Below are positions 1,528 through 19,357 of a stretch of DNA of 64,000 nucleotides, in pieces (the stretch's first letter is position 1; the number at the start of each line of letters is the position of its first letter). Under the pieces are notes generated by a model that saw nothing but the letters and a program-made list of their open reading frames with translations, searched no databases and was not told the DNA's origin. The position numbers and the translations under genes are program-made. The DNA is from Methanosarcinales archaeon Methan_01 (GTDB lineage: Archaea > Halobacteriota > Methanosarcinia > Methanotrichales > Methanotrichaceae). The stretch spans positions 1-64,000 of the forward strand of contig LUYE01000003.1 of the NCBI GenBank assembly GCA_001602645.1, in the 5' to 3' direction.

Positions 1528-4109
<2,582 letters not shown>

Positions 4110-4125
4110 GGCGGGCGGCGGGGGG

Positions 4126-4145
4126 GGCCGGTTCGAGGACCGGCC
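4126..4145 (+). terminator. GC-rich hairpin after CDC48
   Basis: A perfect 7-bp stem GGCCGGT/ACCGGCC with a 6-nt loop starts 17 bases after the CDC48 stop. The following sequence is T/A-rich (ttcgtaaacatttattcattt). It fits a transcription end between two converging genes. The call rests only on position and structure. Confidence 0.5.
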
Positions 4146-4254
4146 TTCGTAAACATTTATTCATTTCAGATCTAAAAAGTGTAATATTATCGAATAAACC
4201 TTGAGATAATCTATGCATTATTTGAATATTTTTCATCGTATTTCGATATCAGTT

Positions 4255-5187
4255 TCATACCGAACCGCCTGCGAGCAGGAATACGATTATTAAAAACACC
4301 AATAACACGATTAAACCTACAATAGCAACCTTATATTTCTGAAGATCGGACTTATGGCTTTCGGGAACTGCAGCTTCGGCTGCCGTGGAAGGAGTGGTGG
4401 CCACATAGTCAGCAGCCAGATCCGCTAGGCACGAATTTCCCGAATGACCGATGCCCGTTATTACGGGCTTTTTACTAGAAGCAATGGCCCGAACCAAAGC
4501 CTCGTCGTTAAAAGCCATGAAATCTTCTGAAGGACCACCACCTCTAGCCAGAATGATCTCATCTACATCGGGATTTTCATTAAGATCTTTTAGGGCTTTG
4601 ATTATACTGAAGGGTGCCCCTTCTCCCCGCGTGGTCGCATAGGCCATGACTGGTTTAATCGTTGGTTTGCAAGAATTGAATACATTCAAGATATCCTGTT
4701 CAGCATCGCTGTTTTTTGAGGCAATAACCCCCACTTTTCTCGGCCGTAGAGGTACTTTCTTTTTCCTGTCATAGTTGAACAGTCCCTCAGCTTCCAGCTT
4801 CTCTCTGAGGTGCTTTAATTCCCGAGAGGTGTTGCCTTCTCCCACTTGAGTGATCTTCGTGATCTTCAATTGATACTGGCTTCTGGGCTCGAAGCTTATC
4901 AAAGAGCCTCTGGCCACTATCTGGATACCATTGCCTAAATCGTTGCAGACTTCAGCCTGAAGATTTTTAAAATAGACACACGCAAGAACGCTTGTCTCAT
5001 CCTTGAGATCAAAGTAAATATGACCCGAATCTGGCCTGCGCAAGTTCGAGATTTCTCCTTCCAAGAAGAGGTCTTTGAATTGAGGATTTCCAGCTAAGAT
5101 ATCCCTTATTTTCCGAGATAGCTGTGTTACTGAATAAATAACATTTTCGTTATCGTTACCAGTTACTGCTGGCATTTGATTCATCAA
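4255..5187 (-). CDS. xseA: Truncated exonuclease VII large subunit-like protein with C-terminal membrane anchor
   Basis: The first 275 residues align by eye with XseA. An OB-fold region (YSVTQLSRKIRDIL, FLEGEISNLRRPDSGHIYF) is followed by the catalytic domain with VGVIASKN..DILNV, LARGGGPSEDF.AFND and GIGHSGN..LAD..A. In typical XseA a long coiled coil that binds XseB follows. Here the protein stops at 310 aa after a hydrophobic helix (about residues 287-306) and GGSV. The usual GHETD motif reads GHSGN, so the acid expected after the conserved His is an Asn. No xseB lies in the window. Base composition is clearly more AT-rich than its neighbours, suggesting transfer. It may be a membrane-tethered, possibly inactive derivative. 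Confidence 0.85.
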   Translation of the reverse strand: MMNQMPAVTGNDNENVIYSVTQLSRKIRDILAGNPQFKDLFLEGEISNLRRPDSGHIYFDLKDETSVLACVYFKNLQAEVCNDLGNGIQIVARGSLISFEPRSQYQLKITKITQVGEGNTSRELKHLREKLEAEGLFNYDRKKKVPLRPRKVGVIASKNSDAEQDILNVFNSCKPTIKPVMAYATTRGEGAPFSIIKALKDLNENPDVDEIILARGGGPSEDFMAFNDEALVRAIASSKKPVITGIGHSGNSCLADLAADYVATTPSTAAEAAVPESHKSDLQKYKVAIVGLIVLLVFLIIVFLLAGGSV

Positions 5188-5315
5188 GGATCACGACTTT
5201 GGGAGCGGTTATCTTTAATGAGATCACGAATCGTAAAAGGTTGTCGGTTATAATAAATAAAAATTATTCCATCTATTCTTCTGACCCGTATCTATTAGCC
5301 TATACGTTACCTTCT

Positions 5316-5362
5316 TCTTATGTAACCTGAGGAAAAGATTTAACCGGCCAGGTTACATAAGA
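5316..5362 (+). promoter_or_regulatory. 14-bp perfect inverted repeat flanking the TATA box of the znu operon
   Basis: TCTTATGTAACCTG at 5316-5329 is repeated exactly in inverted form as CAGGTTACATAAGA at 5349-5362. The 19-nt spacer holds gaaaagatttaa, a good archaeal BRE/TATA candidate about 27 bases before the TTG start at 5370. This is the layout expected for a dimeric repressor that blocks TBP/TFB access. Because the downstream operon encodes a metal importer, a metal-sensing regulator is a reasonable inference. The regulator gene is not identifiable here. Confidence 0.65.
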
Positions 5363-5369
5363 CGCACCC

Positions 5370-5669
5370 TTGATCCCCAAATACATCCTGGAGGAGCTCG
5401 CCGAGGAGGACCTCCCTCACCTCCTGGAGGTGAGAGATTTCCTCGACCGGCTGATAAGAGATCGCGAAGAATCTCCTGTTGAGGATGGCTCCGAAGCCGA
5501 GACCGGTGAGAGGAGGCCCGCCTCCGTCACCTACCGGCAGGAGTGGATCTACTGCGGCAAGGAGTGCAAAAAATGTCCCCATGGCCCCTACTGGTACTGC
5601 TACTGGAAAGAGGACGGAAAAACCAGGACCAAGTACATCGGCAAGGTCCTCAAGGAGGTGGAGCTTTGA
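5370..5669 (+). CDS. Small Cys-rich DUF6788-type protein
   Basis: The 99-aa product starts at TTG. Its second half holds the family signature YCGKECKKCPHGPYWYCYWKEDGKTRTKYIGK, with four closely spaced Cys (C-x3-C-x2-C-x6-C) plus a His that could bind a metal. The N-terminal half is acidic and helical. The function of DUF6788 is not established. The gene is the first after the inverted-repeat promoter, and its TGA overlaps the TTG of znuA, so it is probably translated together with the metal importer. A zinc-binding or sensing role is inference from this context; the family also occurs outside metal operons. Confidence 0.78.
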   Translation: MIPKYILEELAEEDLPHLLEVRDFLDRLIRDREESPVEDGSEAETGERRPASVTYRQEWIYCGKECKKCPHGPYWYCYWKEDGKTRTKYIGKVLKEVEL

Positions 5670-6592
5670 GCTTGAGGTGCATCTTCCTCCTGGCGCTGGC
5701 CCTCTCGGCGTCCTTTTTATGCGGCTGCATATCCTCCGATGAGCTGGCTTCTTCGAAGGAAACGGACCGCGGCGTCAGCCTCGTCGCATCCACCGTGCCC
5801 CTCGGCCACTTCTCGAAGATGGTGGGCGGAGATCGGGTGCAGGTAGACGTCTTGGTTCCGCCGGGCACAAACCCTCACACCTTCGAGCCGTCGCCCTCCA
5901 AGCTCGTAAAGGTGGAGAATGCAGACATCTACGTCAAGAACGGAGCGGGCCTTGAGATCTGGATGGATAGAATAATGCGGGCCAACGAGGATATGCTCGT
6001 TGTCGACTCCTCTTCCGGGGTGGACCTGATCGAGTCGACCGACGCCGGCGATCACGACCACGACGTGAATCTAGGCGATCACGGCGTTCATGAGGATATA
6101 CTGACGGCCGACCCCCACATCTGGCTCTCGCCGCAGAACGCCATGATCATCGTCGATAACATCTGCGACGGCCTCATCGAGGTCGATCCCGAGAACGCCG
6201 ATATCTATCGGAAAAATAGGGACGACTACCTCGACGAGCTTGCAGAGCTCGATCGTGATCTGAACTCGACCTTCTCGGAGATGGATAGAAAGGAGTTCAT
6301 CGTCCTCCACCCATCCTGGGGCTACTTCGCTCGGGACTACGGCCTCGTCCAGGTGGCGATCCTGGAGGAGGAGAAGGAGCCAGGGCCGAGGTACCTCGCC
6401 GAGATCGTCGAGGTCGCCCGCGAAAAGAACCTCACCACCATCTTCGTCGACAAGAACTTCAACCCGAAGTCTGCGGAGATCATCGCCGAAGAGATCGACG
6501 GCAGGGTGGTGCCCCTGGACCCCCTGGCCGAAGATTACGCGGCGAACATGAGGCACGTGGGCCAGGAGATCGCAGAAAGCCTGAAAGGCTGA
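5666..6592 (+). CDS. znuA: Zinc/manganese ABC transporter substrate-binding lipoprotein (ZnuA family)
   Basis: The ORF track begins at 5543, but the real start is most likely TTG 5666. It overlaps the stop of the previous gene and has the Shine-Dalgarno GGAGGTG 5-6 bases upstream. Translation from there gives a signal peptide LRCIFLLALALSASFLCGC with a lipobox-like end. The metal-site histidines of cluster A-I proteins are present in LGHFSKMV, NPHTFEP, DPHIWLSP and HPSWGYFARDYGL. A His/Asp-rich loop (DHDHDVNLGDHGVHED) lies before the third, as is common in zinc-specific members. It captures Zn2+ or Mn2+ outside the cell and hands it to the permease encoded at 7414. Confidence 0.93.
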   Translation: MSLRCIFLLALALSASFLCGCISSDELASSKETDRGVSLVASTVPLGHFSKMVGGDRVQVDVLVPPGTNPHTFEPSPSKLVKVENADIYVKNGAGLEIWMDRIMRANEDMLVVDSSSGVDLIESTDAGDHDHDVNLGDHGVHEDILTADPHIWLSPQNAMIIVDNICDGLIEVDPENADIYRKNRDDYLDELAELDRDLNSTFSEMDRKEFIVLHPSWGYFARDYGLVQVAILEEEKEPGPRYLAEIVEVAREKNLTTIFVDKNFNPKSAEIIAEEIDGRVVPLDPLAEDYAANMRHVGQEIAESLKG

Positions 6593-13697: not shown

Positions 13698-14987
13698 ATG
13701 ATCTCAGTAGTCGTTGTTTATAATAATAAGCATATTTTTGAAGAGGTGCTGATGAGAAGCCTCAAAGACCAGACCGCCGAGTTCGAGCTGATCGCCCTGG
13801 ACAACACCAGAGGAGAGTTCAAATCGGCATCTGAAGCCCTGAACTATGGTGGCCTCAGGGCTACGGGAAGATACATCATGTTCGTTCATCAGGACGTGGA
13901 CCTGGAGAGAGAAACCTGGCTGGAAGAGGTCGAGAAGATATTGGACGGCATACCCGATCTCGGGATTGCAGGCGTTGCAGGCATGAGCGAGGCTGGGAGG
14001 AGCTTTGCGGAGCGGCAGAGGGGGCATATAAGCAATTCGGGGGAGATCTGGGGGAGGGAGATGGAGAAGGAAGAAGAAGTCCAGACCCTCGATGAACTCC
14101 TCCTGATCATACCCAGGAGTCAATTTGAAAAGATGCAGTTTGATGAGGAGACCTTCGATCACTGGCACTGCTATGGAGCAGACTACTGCCTATCCGTCAG
14201 AAGAAAGGGTTTGAAGGCTTATGCGATACCCGCATTTGTTTATCACAGGTCTACCTCCGCAAATATAAAAAATTTTGGAGTTTATAAGAGAAGGTTGTAC
14301 GAGAAACACAAAAGATATTATAAGCAGATCCATACGACCAGCGGTGAGATCTCCTGGTTGAAACTGAAATTTATGACCGTAACAGATCTGATCAGGCCAA
14401 CGTATATGACCCTATTTCCCGATTGGGCCGACCATCTCAAACGAGACCTCTCCGGCTGCGACACCGTTCTGGATCTGGGATGCGGCCATGACTCCCCGAT
14501 TCGCCGCTGTGAAGTCCCTTCTTCAGTCGGTGTGGATATCTCCGACGCGAATCTGGACGAGAGCGTCAAAAAATGTATTCACGACCAGTATATTAGATCC
14601 AAAATAGAATTGGTCGCCTTCAAGCCGAAATCCTTTGACGCGGTGATATCGATCAACTCCACCGAAAATTTGTCGAAGGAAGAGCAGCGCCAGCTGGTCG
14701 AACGTATGGAACGGTGGGCTAGGAAAAAAGTGATAATTGTATCAACAAATGGGGGCTCCCAGGAAAGGGAAGCTGAGGGCGAGGGACGGGGGTGGAACGC
14801 CAAGGATTTGGAGAAGATGGGATTTAAAATATATGGGATATGCGGATGGAGAAGGCTTGGAAGATATGATAAAACGGATCAGACGAGAAGAATAATCTCA
14901 GATTTGACCCAGATAATTACATACCGACATCCGGATTACGCATTGAAGATTTACGCCGTGAAGGAGCTTGAGGATGCACCAGGGTAG
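13698..14987 (+). CDS. Bifunctional GT2 glycosyltransferase-SAM methyltransferase
   Basis: The 429-aa protein has two modules. Residues 1-230 form a GT-A fold beginning SVVVVYNNKHIFEEVLMRSL, with a DxD-like site in FVHQDVDLERETW and a late HWHCYGADYCLSVRRKG. Residues about 250-425 are a class I methyltransferase with motif I VLDLGCGHDSPI, acidic loop VGVDISDANL and FDAVISINSTENLSKEEQ. It probably adds and modifies a sugar in the surface glycan built by the genes downstream. The gene is more AT-rich than the cofE region before it and marks the start of the glycan island. A TATA-like gatatattg lies near 13637. Confidence 0.85.
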   Translation: MISVVVVYNNKHIFEEVLMRSLKDQTAEFELIALDNTRGEFKSASEALNYGGLRATGRYIMFVHQDVDLERETWLEEVEKILDGIPDLGIAGVAGMSEAGRSFAERQRGHISNSGEIWGREMEKEEEVQTLDELLLIIPRSQFEKMQFDEETFDHWHCYGADYCLSVRRKGLKAYAIPAFVYHRSTSANIKNFGVYKRRLYEKHKRYYKQIHTTSGEISWLKLKFMTVTDLIRPTYMTLFPDWADHLKRDLSGCDTVLDLGCGHDSPIRRCEVPSSVGVDISDANLDESVKKCIHDQYIRSKIELVAFKPKSFDAVISINSTENLSKEEQRQLVERMERWARKKVIIVSTNGGSQEREAEGEGRGWNAKDLEKMGFKIYGICGWRRLGRYDKTDQTRRIISDLTQIITYRHPDYALKIYAVKELEDAPG

Positions 14988-15182
14988 AAGATCATTCATA
15001 TCGATCGTCGCTCATAGGACGAGTGTGGATGAATTAGGGGGGCCAAAGGCGGCATGATAACCCTTCAAGGACCGGACAAAAGCAAAACTATTGGTTTAAA
15101 GGTGTCTGAGGCCTTTAATCACTCAGAAACTGAATGAAACCGAGATCCGCTGAAATTTGCTGACGGAGGGGATGCAGAAAGG

Positions 15183-16130
15183 ATGGCAGATAGTTATCCA
15201 ATGGCTTCAATCATAGTCTTGAACTGGAATGGGCTCAAAGATACTATGGAGTGCATCGAATCGCTGGAGAATCTGACGTACCCGAATTATGAAATTTTGC
15301 TGGTGGACAACGGATCGACGGACGGGTCCCAGGAGGCGGTTAAGGAGAGGTTCCCAGATGTGGTTCTTGTCCAGAACGAGACGAACCTGGGCTTCGCCGC
15401 CGGCCTTGGCGAGGGGATAAAATACGCTTCGGCAGAATATATCGCATTTCTCAACAACGATACCGTCGTGGAGAGGCGATGGCTGGATGAGCTTATCAGG
15501 CCGTTTCTCACCACCGACGATGAGATCGGCGCCACCAGCTCCACCATAATGAGCTACGGAGATAGAGAGGAGGTCCAATACGGAGGAGATAGCAGACTGA
15601 ACATATTCGGCCAGACGCGGGCATCGAATAAGGTGGAGCGAGGAATAAAGGAGACGGGGACCATCTCCGGCGCGAGTTTCATGATGAAAAGGGAGGTCAT
15701 AGACGGCCTCGAGGAGTTCCTCTGCCCCGAATACTTCGCCTACTTCGAGGAGATCGACCTATCATGGAGGCTGGTAAATAGGGGGTACAAGCTGATATAC
15801 TCGCCGGGATCGGTCGTATACCATAAAGGGGGGATGACGAGCAGGAAAATATCCGACAGGATGAGAATAAATGATGTCAGAAACAAATACCTCACATTTT
15901 ACAGAAATCTCCCCAACTCCCGGCTTCTTTTGGCATACCCCTTGCTGCTATTCTTCGACCTCGCCTCGATCCTGGTCCTGGTATTCTACGCGAGGAGGAC
16001 TAAGAACGCGAGATTGAGGTTCCGGGGAATGGTGGAGTTCTTCGGATTGAAGAAGAAGGTTAGGCGATACGGTGACGGTAAGCTATCCTTTCTGGATAAA
16101 CGGATCTTCTGGGATAAGCTTTACCTTTAA
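15183..16130 (+). CDS. GT2 glycosyltransferase, rhamnosyltransferase-like
   Basis: The 315-aa enzyme has the WbbL-type GT2 order: ASIIVLNWNGLKDTMECIESL, LLVDNGSTDGS, FLNNDTVVERRWLDEL (DxD-like NDT), GASFMMKREVI and EYFAYFEEIDLSWRLVNRGYK, then VYHKGGMTS. The C-terminal part contains a hydrophobic stretch (LLLAYPLLLFFDLASILVLVF) that could bind the membrane. AAAGG just before the ATG and a TATA-like ggtttaaagg near 15096 support this start. It converges on the GT4 gene with a 3-base gap. It probably adds a deoxysugar to a lipid-linked glycan; the sugar is not provable. Confidence 0.92.
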   Translation: MADSYPMASIIVLNWNGLKDTMECIESLENLTYPNYEILLVDNGSTDGSQEAVKERFPDVVLVQNETNLGFAAGLGEGIKYASAEYIAFLNNDTVVERRWLDELIRPFLTTDDEIGATSSTIMSYGDREEVQYGGDSRLNIFGQTRASNKVERGIKETGTISGASFMMKREVIDGLEEFLCPEYFAYFEEIDLSWRLVNRGYKLIYSPGSVVYHKGGMTSRKISDRMRINDVRNKYLTFYRNLPNSRLLLAYPLLLFFDLASILVLVFYARRTKNARLRFRGMVEFFGLKKKVRRYGDGKLSFLDKRIFWDKLYL

Positions 16131-16133
16131 GTT

Positions 16134-17165
16134 CTATATCTCATGGAGGAGAGCCTCGAACTCGGATTTAAATCGAGCGCACATCTCCGCCTTATTGAAC
16201 TTCTTAGATATGATTTTGGCCTTATTCGATAGAGCAAGCCGTTTCTCCTCCTCCAGATCGAAATAGCGGAGGATCCCCTCGGCGATATCATCTTGGTCGA
16301 CTCGTCTCACGAACTCCGTTCCCAGTGCCGAGACAACTTCCTTGGTACCGGTCTTCTCCGTCACCATGGTGGGAACGCCCGCCCTCAAGCTCTCGAGGCT
16401 TGATACCGGAAAGGTGTCGGCCCTTGAAGGCTGGACGAACAGGCTCGCGCTCTTGAAATATGGTATGAGGTCGGAGACGTGCCCTTCTACGTGAACGCCC
16501 TTCGTTTCATTCCACCTTTCAGGATGCCCCCCGCCGATGATGTAAAGCTCCGAATCGGGCACTTCGTTCCTCACTTTTTTGAACGCATCCACGAGGATGT
16601 CCATTCCTTTGTAGGTCCCGGAACCGACAGACATGATCATATTTTTTTGTAATTTGGGCGCGAGGGAGCTGAGCCTTTGGTATAGATCCTCCTCTATGAA
16701 GGGGTGGGCCACCCTGATCGGCCCATCTATGAACAATTCCGCAGTTTCTTTGGCGAAGTTCGAGACTGCTATGGCGCCATCTATGTACTTTGATGCGAAC
16801 TTATGGGCAAAGTTCGTAAGCGAACCGTACTGTCCGCTCATCTCCTGGGGGGTGTGTTCCATCATGATAAAGGTGTGATCCGATATCAGGTTGACATTTT
16901 TTAAGGCGTTTCTACTTTTATTTATGGATGCTAATTTCTTTATCGCCACCGGGATGAGGGGAGCACCACCCTCCGTCAGATAAACGTCGTAATCGGGGAT
17001 CAATAAGCCGTTTATGAAGCTCTTCATCATCTTAGGATATATATTGTGATTTACATAGTGGTTGTAACTCCAAAAATCAGCCTCAATGGAATCCGCAAAG
17101 GCCTTATGAGATGGATGCGGATTGTAATATACAAATAATACCTGGGACCTCGATCTATCGAGCAT
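16134..17165 (-). CDS. GT4 glycosyltransferase
   Basis: The 343-aa GT-B enzyme has an N-terminal acceptor domain (VLFVYYNPHPSHKAFADSIEADF) and a C-terminal donor domain with MSVGSGTYKGMDILVDAFKKV and SLFVQPSRADTFPVSSLESLRAGVPTMVTEKTG, where E-x7-E is loosely kept. It starts 9 bases after the GT2 stop at 17175, so the two are probably co-transcribed. It belongs to the minus-strand glycan operon and should transfer a sugar to the growing surface glycan at the cytoplasmic membrane face. Confidence 0.9.
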   Translation of the reverse strand: MLDRSRSQVLFVYYNPHPSHKAFADSIEADFWSYNHYVNHNIYPKMMKSFINGLLIPDYDVYLTEGGAPLIPVAIKKLASINKSRNALKNVNLISDHTFIMMEHTPQEMSGQYGSLTNFAHKFASKYIDGAIAVSNFAKETAELFIDGPIRVAHPFIEEDLYQRLSSLAPKLQKNMIMSVGSGTYKGMDILVDAFKKVRNEVPDSELYIIGGGHPERWNETKGVHVEGHVSDLIPYFKSASLFVQPSRADTFPVSSLESLRAGVPTMVTEKTGTKEVVSALGTEFVRRVDQDDIAEGILRYFDLEEEKRLALSNKAKIISKKFNKAEMCARFKSEFEALLHEI

Positions 17166-17174
17166 ATCAATTAC

Positions 17175-18116
17175 CTATGCATTCAAATTTTGGCGCAGTT
17201 TGGCGTTTTGGACTCCAGTCAAAGCCACCAGCATCTTTTCTCTGTAAATATCTGGGGTTATCAGAGCCGCAAGTACGTGGACGATGCCGTTCTGGATTGG
17301 ATTGAGCTTCATGGATCTGAACATGAACCTGGTCCCTTCAGCCTTGTCCCCTGTAAGATAGTAGAGAGCTCCAAGATATCTGTACTGCTCGGCGAGAGTT
17401 TTCCGATTTCTGGAGAAGTCCTCGTGATGCTTTTTCAGCACGCCCTCGACCCCCAATATTAATCCCGATTGATCGAAGGTCATCTGATCGCCGTGGATGT
17501 GATAGACGGCTAATATTTCAGGTACATATTCGAATTTATATTCTTTTGCCAACCGGATCCACATATCCCAGTCCTCGCAGCTTGGAAGCTCTTCGTCGAA
17601 ATATCCGACGACTTCAAAGCAGGATCTCCTTATTATTATCGTGGTAACGCTGAGGATACTTCCTTTCAGCATCCTGGCATATACATCGCCCCTCTCGGCC
17701 GGGTAATACTCGCCCGCGATCCTTCCATCCTGTTCGGTGCGGTAACCGCTATAAACGACTCCGTAGTTCTCGGTCAATCGATCGAGGAGATCGACCTGCA
17801 TCTCCAGCTTATATGGGAGCCACTCATCGTCATCGTCCAGAAGAGCTACGTAATCTCCCATCGACGAGCGGATTCCCATGTTTCTAGCATTTGAGAGGCC
17901 TCTCCTTCCCGTCTCTGATACGTATCTGATCCTCCGGTCTCCAAAGCCCTTGACGACCTCCTTCGTCTCGTCGTCGGAGCTTCCATCCACCACTATCAGT
18001 TCAAAGTCCTGATAACTCTGACCGAGGACGCTCTTTATGGCCCTGCCCACCAATGACGGCCGATTGTATGTCGGTATTATCACGCTGACGTGAGGGAAAT
18101 CCCCATCTTCTGACAA
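17175..18116 (-). CDS. GT2 glycosyltransferase
   Basis: The 313-aa protein starts at TTG and has a classical GT2 N-terminus: VSVIIPTYNRPSLVGRAIKSVLGQSYQDFELIVVDGSSDDET, LSNARNMGIRSSMGDYVALLDDDDEW (DxD within DDDDE) and later SCEDWDMWIRLA, which holds the catalytic base region. The C-terminal 90 residues are helical. A 287-bp gap separates it from the upstream GT2 gene, so it may have its own promoter. It is part of the glycan island; sugar specificity is unknown. Confidence 0.92.
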   Translation of the reverse strand: MSEDGDFPHVSVIIPTYNRPSLVGRAIKSVLGQSYQDFELIVVDGSSDDETKEVVKGFGDRRIRYVSETGRRGLSNARNMGIRSSMGDYVALLDDDDEWLPYKLEMQVDLLDRLTENYGVVYSGYRTEQDGRIAGEYYPAERGDVYARMLKGSILSVTTIIIRRSCFEVVGYFDEELPSCEDWDMWIRLAKEYKFEYVPEILAVYHIHGDQMTFDQSGLILGVEGVLKKHHEDFSRNRKTLAEQYRYLGALYYLTGDKAEGTRFMFRSMKLNPIQNGIVHVLAALITPDIYREKMLVALTGVQNAKLRQNLNA

Positions 18117-18403
18117 CTCGTCGCCTCTCTATTCCGTCCAGTCATTTTGAGCGATGATATATCTTTCGTCCCATCTTTCGTCCCCCGCAGGCCTTCGTGA
18201 CCGAACCGCCAGGATGCTCCGTATAATCAGAGTTAAATTTGGACCATCAATCTTATCCCAGTTAGGGATCATGGAATCCGATTGACATTCCGTATTTTAG
18301 TCCCTTCTGATGGAGGTGAAAAAAGATCATAATCCGTAGGATGAAGAGACGACACGTGGACATCCCCATGAGATGACAGGTTAGAAAATCCAACGCCCAG
18401 CCT
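18117..18403 (-). other. 287-bp gap within the glycan island, no gene seen
   Basis: No ORF with a recognisable domain was found. It holds an AT-rich stretch including agttaaatttggacc at 18231-18245. The 13-mer TTAAATTTGGACC recurs upstream of the GTPase gene at 43345. It could be promoter DNA for the minus-strand gene at 18116 or a remnant. Confidence 0.3.
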
Positions 18404-19357
18404 TCATCGCCAGATTTTCCGCGCCATCTTCTTTAAAAAAAGAAATAGCGGAGGAGGGATTTTTGCCATTATAAGTGCTTTTATTTTTAATTTATGATGA
18501 TATCTCGTTTTGCATTGTTTGAGTATAACCTCTGCATCATCAGATCTGCCAGCCGATATGTTCAGAAAAGCCCGATTGATCTCCTTCAGTGATATGTACT
18601 CGATCAGGGGTTCCAGGAGATCTGGTGGAACCATCCCTGCCTCTATGGCCTCTCGTGCAGTTTTGACGAAGGGCTCCTCGTGGTCTAAGGGGCTTCTCCT
18701 GTCGCACGCCCGATTTGAGGCATCGCAGTGATAGATCACCCCAAGCTCCCAGCTGAAGGCGACCGGATACTTCAATGCTATCTTGCCGAAAAGGTCCGCA
18801 TCCTCTCCCCACCAATATCCGATGGGGAAGCCCCCCACCTCTTCGAATATGCTTTTGGGAACGGCCATTCCCGACGTGATCACCGGATATTCCCCCAGAG
18901 CCGCCGATTTGAAGTAGTTCGGCATCAGGCCTTCCCAGGGCGGTTCGGGTAGCTCTCTATATTCGGCCGAACGTACCTCTCCATCCATCGTCTGGACTCT
19001 ATAGGCGGTGGCATACATCCCCGCCTCAGGATGCTTGCCTCTCAACCTGAGGACCGTCTCCAGATGGCCGGGCATCCATTCGTCGTCGGCGTCGAGGAAG
19101 GCCACCAGATCCGCCCTCGACCTCTCCACCGCCTGATTTCTTGCAGTTGAGACCCCGGTCCCTTCCTGAAGGAAGAGGCTGATCCGGCGGTCATCGAACG
19201 ATCGGACCGCGGCAGGCCCCTCATCCGTGGAGCCCCCGTCAACTACGACGACCTCGAAGTCCTGAAAGGTCTGATTGAGGACAGAGCGGAGGGCGCGACC
19301 GATATGAGGGCCCTTATTGTAGAGGGGGATCACCACGGAGATCTCGGGCATGATCAA
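18404..19357 (-). CDS. GT2 glycosyltransferase
   Basis: The 317-aa GT-A enzyme has ISVVIPLYNKGPHIGRALRSVLNQTFQDFEVVVVDGGSTDEG, VSTARNQAVERSRADLVAFLDADDEW (DxD) and WWGEDADLFGKIALKY, the acid region expected near the acceptor site. The end is basic (LFLFLKKMARKIWR), suggesting membrane contact. Its start overlaps the stop of the pyruvyl transferase gene by 4 bases, so they are translationally coupled. Substrates are unknown. Confidence 0.92.
   Translation of the reverse strand: MIMPEISVVIPLYNKGPHIGRALRSVLNQTFQDFEVVVVDGGSTDEGPAAVRSFDDRRISLFLQEGTGVSTARNQAVERSRADLVAFLDADDEWMPGHLETVLRLRGKHPEAGMYATAYRVQTMDGEVRSAEYRELPEPPWEGLMPNYFKSAALGEYPVITSGMAVPKSIFEEVGGFPIGYWWGEDADLFGKIALKYPVAFSWELGVIYHCDASNRACDRRSPLDHEEPFVKTAREAIEAGMVPPDLLEPLIEYISLKEINRAFLNISAGRSDDAEVILKQCKTRYHHKLKIKALIMAKIPPPLFLFLKKMARKIWR

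What the first reader, a model, noticed from the sequence alone, without database searches (positions are those of the whole stretch)
4255..5187. Minimal exonuclease VII large subunit tethered to the membrane
The gene keeps the OB-fold and catalytic domain of XseA but ends in a transmembrane helix in place of the XseB-binding coiled coil. The GHETD motif is GHSGN, so the acid after the catalytic His is lost. It is AT-rich against a GC-rich background, and no xseB is nearby. A membrane-bound single-strand nuclease, or a dead decoy that binds ssDNA at the membrane, would be a new variant of this family and might serve in DNA uptake control or defence.
Basis: partly seen in the sequence, partly recalled or inferred. 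Interest (0 to 1): 0.72.

Follow-up and report, generated by a model that had tools for sequence, protein, structure and literature searches.

The report
Eroded copy of membrane-anchored exonuclease VII
This methanogen gene is a shortened, probably nuclease-dead leftover of a rare, apparently undescribed membrane-anchored form of the DNA-cutting enzyme exonuclease VII, whose intact two-gene versions sit in a few relatives, some beside anti-virus genes.

Summary
In detail: 4255-5187(-) encodes an XseA OB-fold plus catalytic core ending in a transmembrane helix, with GHSGN for GHETD and 45% GC against about 60-67% nearby. The reading 'a minimal, complete ExoVII' does not hold. The gene belongs to a monophyletic, tail-anchored XseA clade (support 100/100) of seven loci: six in Methanotrichaceae, one in another archaeal MAG. 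Five are intact: OB-fold, catalytic core, coiled-coil stalk, C-terminal TM helix, and a dedicated second xseB directly behind xseA. The window copy is a derivative: stalk deleted in frame, xseB reduced to a ~67-nt remnant, and five near-invariant residues replaced (E. coli T146, Q177, E239, D241, R252), more than in any of 53 other XseAs. Yet its frame is open while the xseB remnant is riddled with gaps, so the short protein was probably kept under selection. Best reading: a catalytically crippled, membrane-held ssDNA-binding descendant of a membrane-anchored ExoVII; a decaying gene is the main rival. The host has a normal xseA-xseB elsewhere. Intact loci adjoin known defence genes in two independent settings, so defence is plausible but unproven. 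The real novelty is the tail-anchored XseAB operon, not the window gene.

The parts
4255..5187 (-). Shortened tail-anchored XseA gene (310 codons from TTG 5187; likely start ATG 5175)
   Evidence: start by comparison with relatives
4852..5136 (-). OB-fold (tRNA_anti_2), including the F equivalent to E. coli F63 (DNA-binding residue)
   Evidence: Pfam; F72 in 309-aa numbering; F63 role from PMC11077951
4351..4782 (-). Catalytic core, first half of Exonuc_VII_L; D164, R214, H247 kept; T155A, Q186R, E248S, D250N, R261V (309-aa numbering)
4435..4449 (-). GHSGN in place of GHETD/GHExD
4258..4362 (-). C-terminal tail ESHKSDLQKYK + TM helix + AGGSV, homologous to the C-terminus of stalked relatives; the stalk is deleted immediately before it
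   Evidence: 60% identity to G003 tail, E=4.4e-5; alignment; AF2 helix 278-304
4273..4329 (-). Transmembrane helix VAIVGLIVLLVFLIIVFLL
   Evidence: hydropathy
4191..4257 (-). Eroded remnant of xseB beginning at the ATGA overlap with the xseA stop
   Evidence: DNA local alignment score 26.5 to relatives' xseB; 4 of 4000 shuffles reach it; 0 of 4000 for the first 80 nt
4151..5314 (.). Accessory segment: homology to eight same-genus genomes stops at about 4112-4150 and resumes at 5315; other genomes carry different cargo or almost none here
1950..4109 (+). Flanking CDC48-type AAA ATPase (core gene)
5543..6592 (+). Flanking ZnuA-type metal-binding protein of a znu operon (ORF as listed; true start probably further in)

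Best explanation
The gene descends from a two-gene operon for a membrane-anchored exonuclease VII (tail-anchored XseA plus its own XseB). In the intact form (inferred), the OB-fold/catalytic head is held in the cytoplasm next to the membrane by a coiled-coil stalk that probably carries XseB, and cuts single-stranded DNA appearing there, such as incoming viral or plasmid DNA. In the window's lineage the stalk was deleted in frame, xseB eroded, and signature residues of the catalytic domain were replaced (shown). The remaining protein keeps the OB-fold, the core fold and the anchor; most likely it is a catalytically dead or crippled ssDNA-binding protein at the membrane that is still under selection (inferred). 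Descent from the operon I hold at about 0.9; retention as a functional pseudoenzyme rather than a decaying gene at about 0.5.
For: Clade: 100/100 support, separate from the host's own canonical XseA. Five stalked relatives carry coiled coil + TM. A second XseB over the Pfam cut-off lies directly behind each of the five. The window tail is homologous to theirs. xseB remnant at the expected place; weak upstream similarity too, 4 of 1000 shuffles. Five of 43 near-invariant columns broken, the most of 54 sequences. OB residue F63 equivalent kept. Fold kept: AF2 pLDDT 91, best PDB match E. coli ExoVII 8txr, 8.9e-29. Selection: codon-position change rates on the window branch 0.168/0.132/0.347, so amino-acid-changing sites are still constrained, though less than in sister L132 (0.114/0.073/0.326). 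The aligned xseB remnant needs several frame-breaking gaps in 67 nt, whereas 927 nt of xseA has none; at even 1 per 67 nt chance is about 1e-6.
Against: The indel contrast rests on one 67-nt gapped alignment. Relaxed constraint and loss of partner, stalk and conserved residues also fit ordinary decay. ssDNA binding, membrane location and loss of activity are not measured. The essential role of D241 in E. coli is from memory (Poleszak 2012), not read here.
Confidence: 0.5

Rival explanations
1. A pseudogene in the making: a horizontally acquired tail-anchored xseAB operon is being lost, and the xseA frame simply has not yet picked up a stop.
For: Stalk deleted, xseB eroded, conserved residues lost, longer branch and relaxed constraint, accessory site with high turnover. 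G005 shows another broken copy: core and stalk/TM/xseB on different contigs.
Against: 310 codons open with the TM intact, while the neighbouring xseB remnant needs several frame-breaking gaps; third-position changes still exceed first and second.
Confidence: 0.35
2. One reading: a minimal, XseB-free membrane ssDNA nuclease.
For: D155, R205 and H238 equivalents are kept; one Omnitrophota homologue also has N at the D241 position (L111).
Against: D241, E239, R252, Q177 and T146 equivalents all replaced; no XseB and no stalk; second half of the XseA family model absent.
Confidence: 0.1
3. Assembly or binning artefact: the short form does not exist in the organism.
For: The genome is a draft of 85 contigs with 3.2% estimated contamination; no second copy of the short form was found.
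Against: The segment sits cleanly between cdc48 and the znu operon, which also neighbour each other in most same-genus genomes; the junction is in frame; the xseB remnant shows real erosion.
Confidence: 0.05

Closest known systems
Exonuclease VII large subunit XseA (PF02601/PF13742, TIGR00237; PDB 8txr)
   Same: OB-fold and catalytic core, D155/R205/H238 equivalents; intact relatives also have D241, a coiled coil and a cognate XseB gene
   Different: The clade lacks the canonical C-terminal SPLxTLxRGY region and ends in a TM helix; the window copy also lacks stalk, XseB and D241
SNIPE (membrane-bound GIY-YIG nuclease that cuts phage DNA during injection; PMC13190303)
   Same: A single TM helix holds a nucleic-acid-binding nuclease at the membrane; a way the intact form could work
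   Different: Different nuclease domain, N-terminal anchor, DUF4041; no homology; no defence assay for the XseA clade
Host's own canonical XseA-XseB (G000 C69)
   Same: Same family, 38% identity over the core
   Different: Full length, no TM tail, GHETD, adjacent intact xseB; distinct clade

Membership tests
Exonuclease VII large subunit (XseA) | N-terminal OB-fold | tested here: met
   PF13742 1.1e-22
Exonuclease VII large subunit (XseA) | Scores above the xseA equivalog cut-off | tested here: met
   TIGR00237 291.1 vs 180 bits, but only positions 1-260 of 389
Exonuclease VII large subunit (XseA) | Catalytic residues D155, R205, H238, D241 (E. coli; the set is recalled from the literature; D155 is named catalytic in PMC11077951, H238A is in the title of 8txr) | tested here: not met
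   Three of four kept; D241 is N, E239 is S. All four kept in the five intact relatives and G005
Exonuclease VII large subunit (XseA) | Coiled coil that carries XseB | tested here: not met
   Absent in the window protein; an 80-residue helix in stalked relative L131
Exonuclease VII large subunit (XseA) | Cognate xseB | tested here: not met
   Only a remnant at 4191-4257; intact in five relatives. The host's canonical xseB is elsewhere
Exonuclease VII large subunit (XseA) | ssDNA-specific exonuclease activity | not testable with these tools
   needs protein
Tail-anchored XseA clade (defined here) | Clade membership and homologous C-terminal TM tail | tested here: met
   100/100; tail 60% identical, E=4.4e-5
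SNIPE | DUF4041 and GIY-YIG domains | tested here: not met
   No significant Pfam match (a LEM-3_GIY-YIG line at E=0.15 is below the cut-off)
Known anti-phage defence protein | Match to a PADLOC model | tested here: not met
   No match for the window protein or for relative L131

The most novel reading that the evidence does not exclude
Some methanogens carry a mobile two-gene system, a tail-anchored exonuclease VII with its own XseB, that degrades single-stranded DNA at the membrane as antiviral or anti-plasmid defence; the window's lineage has turned it into a nuclease-dead, membrane-held ssDNA trap or dominant-negative partner.
Probability: 0.25. Interest if true: 0.75.

Novelty: new variant of a known kind. 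Interest (0 to 1): 0.5.

Why it matters
Exonuclease VII is treated as a soluble repair enzyme. A clade that pairs its own XseB with an XseA anchored in the membrane would be a second architecture for this enzyme and a candidate for cutting DNA at its point of entry, an idea recently shown for an unrelated nuclease (SNIPE). The window copy offers a natural test of which parts are dispensable: partner, stalk and probably catalysis are gone, but the DNA-binding fold and anchor remain. I found no description of a membrane-anchored XseA in the papers held here.

Tried and rejected
Hidden frameshift with a normal C-terminus: rejected, no room and no coding frame. TM tail as a chance replacement: rejected, homologous tail in relatives. 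TM tail common in XseA: rejected for the loci surveyed, about 120 of them canonical; searches of 238 class-level and 394 phylum-level genomes found only the seven clade loci, L041 being G321. Other phyla were sampled only through the best matches to the window protein, so TM-tailed XseA of separate origin elsewhere is not excluded. Virus carriage: a viral contig scan found no relative; plasmid and phage searches returned only matches below 60% identity that do not cover the whole protein. The first protein-level test of the xseB remnant was not significant (375 of 1000 shuffles reach the score; anchored version 58 of 2000); only the DNA-level test was. Defence enrichment could not be given a background rate; Azaca ZacC occurs in 5 of 50 family genomes, so one adjacency is weak evidence. 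The key paper on XseA mutants is not held.

Full report
What is there. The ORF at 4255-5187(-) is real. It carries an OB-fold (PF13742, residues 18-112) and the first half of the XseA catalytic family (PF02601, 136-279), scores above the NCBIfam xseA cut-off and matches the E. coli ExoVII chain 8txr over residues 16-273. It ends in a strongly hydrophobic 19-residue helix. Its GC is 44.8% in surroundings of 60-67%. The host is an archaeal draft genome; the nearest named relatives of the gene are in Methanosaeta/Methanothrix MAGs.

It is a second copy. The same genome has an ordinary full-length xseA (C69:57148) with an adjacent xseB (C69:58395). The two XseAs are 38% identical and fall in different clades.

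Relatives define a tail-anchored clade. Four Methanotrichaceae genomes (G003, G016, G017, G021) hold proteins 59-64% identical to the window protein, in open frames of 391-420 codons; G321 (a Methanosarcinales MAG, locus L041) holds one at 49% and G005 a broken one at 52%. All five intact ones have the OB-fold, the catalytic core with D155, R205, H238 and D241 equivalents, a coiled-coil segment of variable length, and a C-terminal TM helix preceded by KYK; they lack the canonical C-terminal SPLxTLxRGY region. The clade is monophyletic with 100/100 support on a long stem and does not group with Methanotrichaceae canonical XseA. In the loci fetched, about 120 of them canonical, no other XseA had a TM tail. 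Searches of 238 class-level and 394 phylum-level genomes found no further members.

The intact form is a two-gene operon. Directly behind each of the five stalked genes, overlapping or within a few bases of the stop, lies an ORF such as MNDKRYFDNIGRIQAIISRLDSEKLPPEEARELYKTGRELIEECEAIL; these are XseB family members over the Pfam cut-off, additional to each genome's canonical xseB. In G005 the core lies on contig C146 and the stalk, TM and XseB on contig C62, so that copy is interrupted or split. AlphaFold gives the stalked protein a head, an 80-residue helix and a separate TM helix. That XseB binds this stalk is inferred from canonical ExoVII.

The window copy is a derivative. Its last 35 residues are homologous to the relatives' tail (60% identity, E=4.4e-5); the stalk is missing in frame between VP and ESHKSDLQKYK. 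The 67 nt that begin at the stop align at DNA level with the relatives' xseB start (score 26.5; 4 of 4000 dinucleotide shuffles reach it, 0 of 4000 for the first 80 nt), with the ATGA overlap kept but with gaps and in-frame stops. A protein-level version of this test was not significant. Upstream similarity is weak (4 of 1000 shuffles). Of 43 columns that are at least 95% conserved in the other sequences, the window protein breaks five (T155A, Q186R, E248S, D250N, R261V in 309-aa numbering); no other of the 54 sequences breaks more than three. These correspond to E. coli T146, Q177, E239, D241 and R252. The F63 equivalent, whose alanine mutant is described as a DNA-binding mutant (PMC11077951), is kept.

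Is it still functional? On the window's branch the change rates at codon positions 1, 2, 3 are 0.168, 0.132, 0.347; on the sister branch L132 they are 0.114, 0.073, 0.326. So constraint is present but looser. The xseA frame has no frame break in 927 nt, whereas the aligned 67 nt of the xseB remnant need several; even at one break per 67 nt an unbroken frame would be expected with probability about 1e-6. This favours a protein that was kept after its partner was lost, but it rests on one short alignment, so decay remains a serious rival. Structure prediction keeps the head fold (pLDDT 91; best PDB match 8txr; the low TM-score there reflects the placing of the domains and the tail against each other, which the monomer model does not fix).

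Genomic setting. In the window the gene fills an accessory gap between cdc48 and a znu operon. None of eight same-genus genomes has it; homology ends at about 4112-4150 and resumes at 5315, and the gap holds different genes or almost nothing in other genomes. In G013 it holds a DNA methyltransferase and an ORF without a family. Among intact loci, the G003 operon lies convergent to a complete Azaca system (ZacA, ZacB, ZacC) and near a transposase and a YhcG-type nuclease; the G016 and G017 loci share a downstream DrmD-like helicase, followed in G016 by a DrmMI/type IIG-like methyltransferase and SoFic. These count as two independent associations without a background rate; Azaca is in 5 of 50 family genomes. 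The system name Azaca for ZacABC is from my own knowledge of the defence-system literature.

Mechanism. Shown: homology, architecture, operon structure in relatives, deletion, xseB erosion, residue losses. Inferred: cytoplasmic head, membrane insertion of the tail, XseB on the stalk, ssDNA cutting at the membrane by intact members, ssDNA binding without cutting by the window protein, and any role in defence. SNIPE (PMC13190303) shows that a membrane-bound nuclease can cut phage DNA during injection; it is an analogy of working, not of descent.

Verdict. The finding points to something more interesting than the window gene itself: an apparently undescribed tail-anchored XseAB operon in methanogens.

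Noticed in passing
window 4110-5315 and the same site in G008-G014 (L135-L141): The cdc48-znu gap is a turnover hotspot in this genus: methyltransferase, metal-binding protein, DNA methyltransferase with an unassigned ORF, other ORFs, or nearly empty.
   Followed up: partly
window 5317-5361: Perfect inverted repeat CTTATGTAACCTG / CAGGTTACATAAG just upstream of the small ORF and znu operon; one arm at least is conserved in several same-genus genomes, and genus-wide homology starts at 5315. A possible metal-regulator operator.
   Followed up: partly
L187 (G005 C62) and L133 (G005 C146): The G005 tail-anchored xseA is split between two contigs right after the catalytic core (stop after AAVPNMEV), while stalk, TM and xseB lie on the other.
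   Followed up: partly
L111 (Candidatus Omnitrophota): An XseA with GHQDN, so a natural D241N-like change in an unrelated long-branch sequence.
   Followed up: no
window 13698-19357: AT-rich stretch (about 47-51% GC) of glycosyltransferase genes, probably a surface-glycan cluster of foreign composition.
   Followed up: partly
L137 (G011): A second, partial cdc48-like copy lies downstream of cdc48 at the same hotspot.
   Followed up: no
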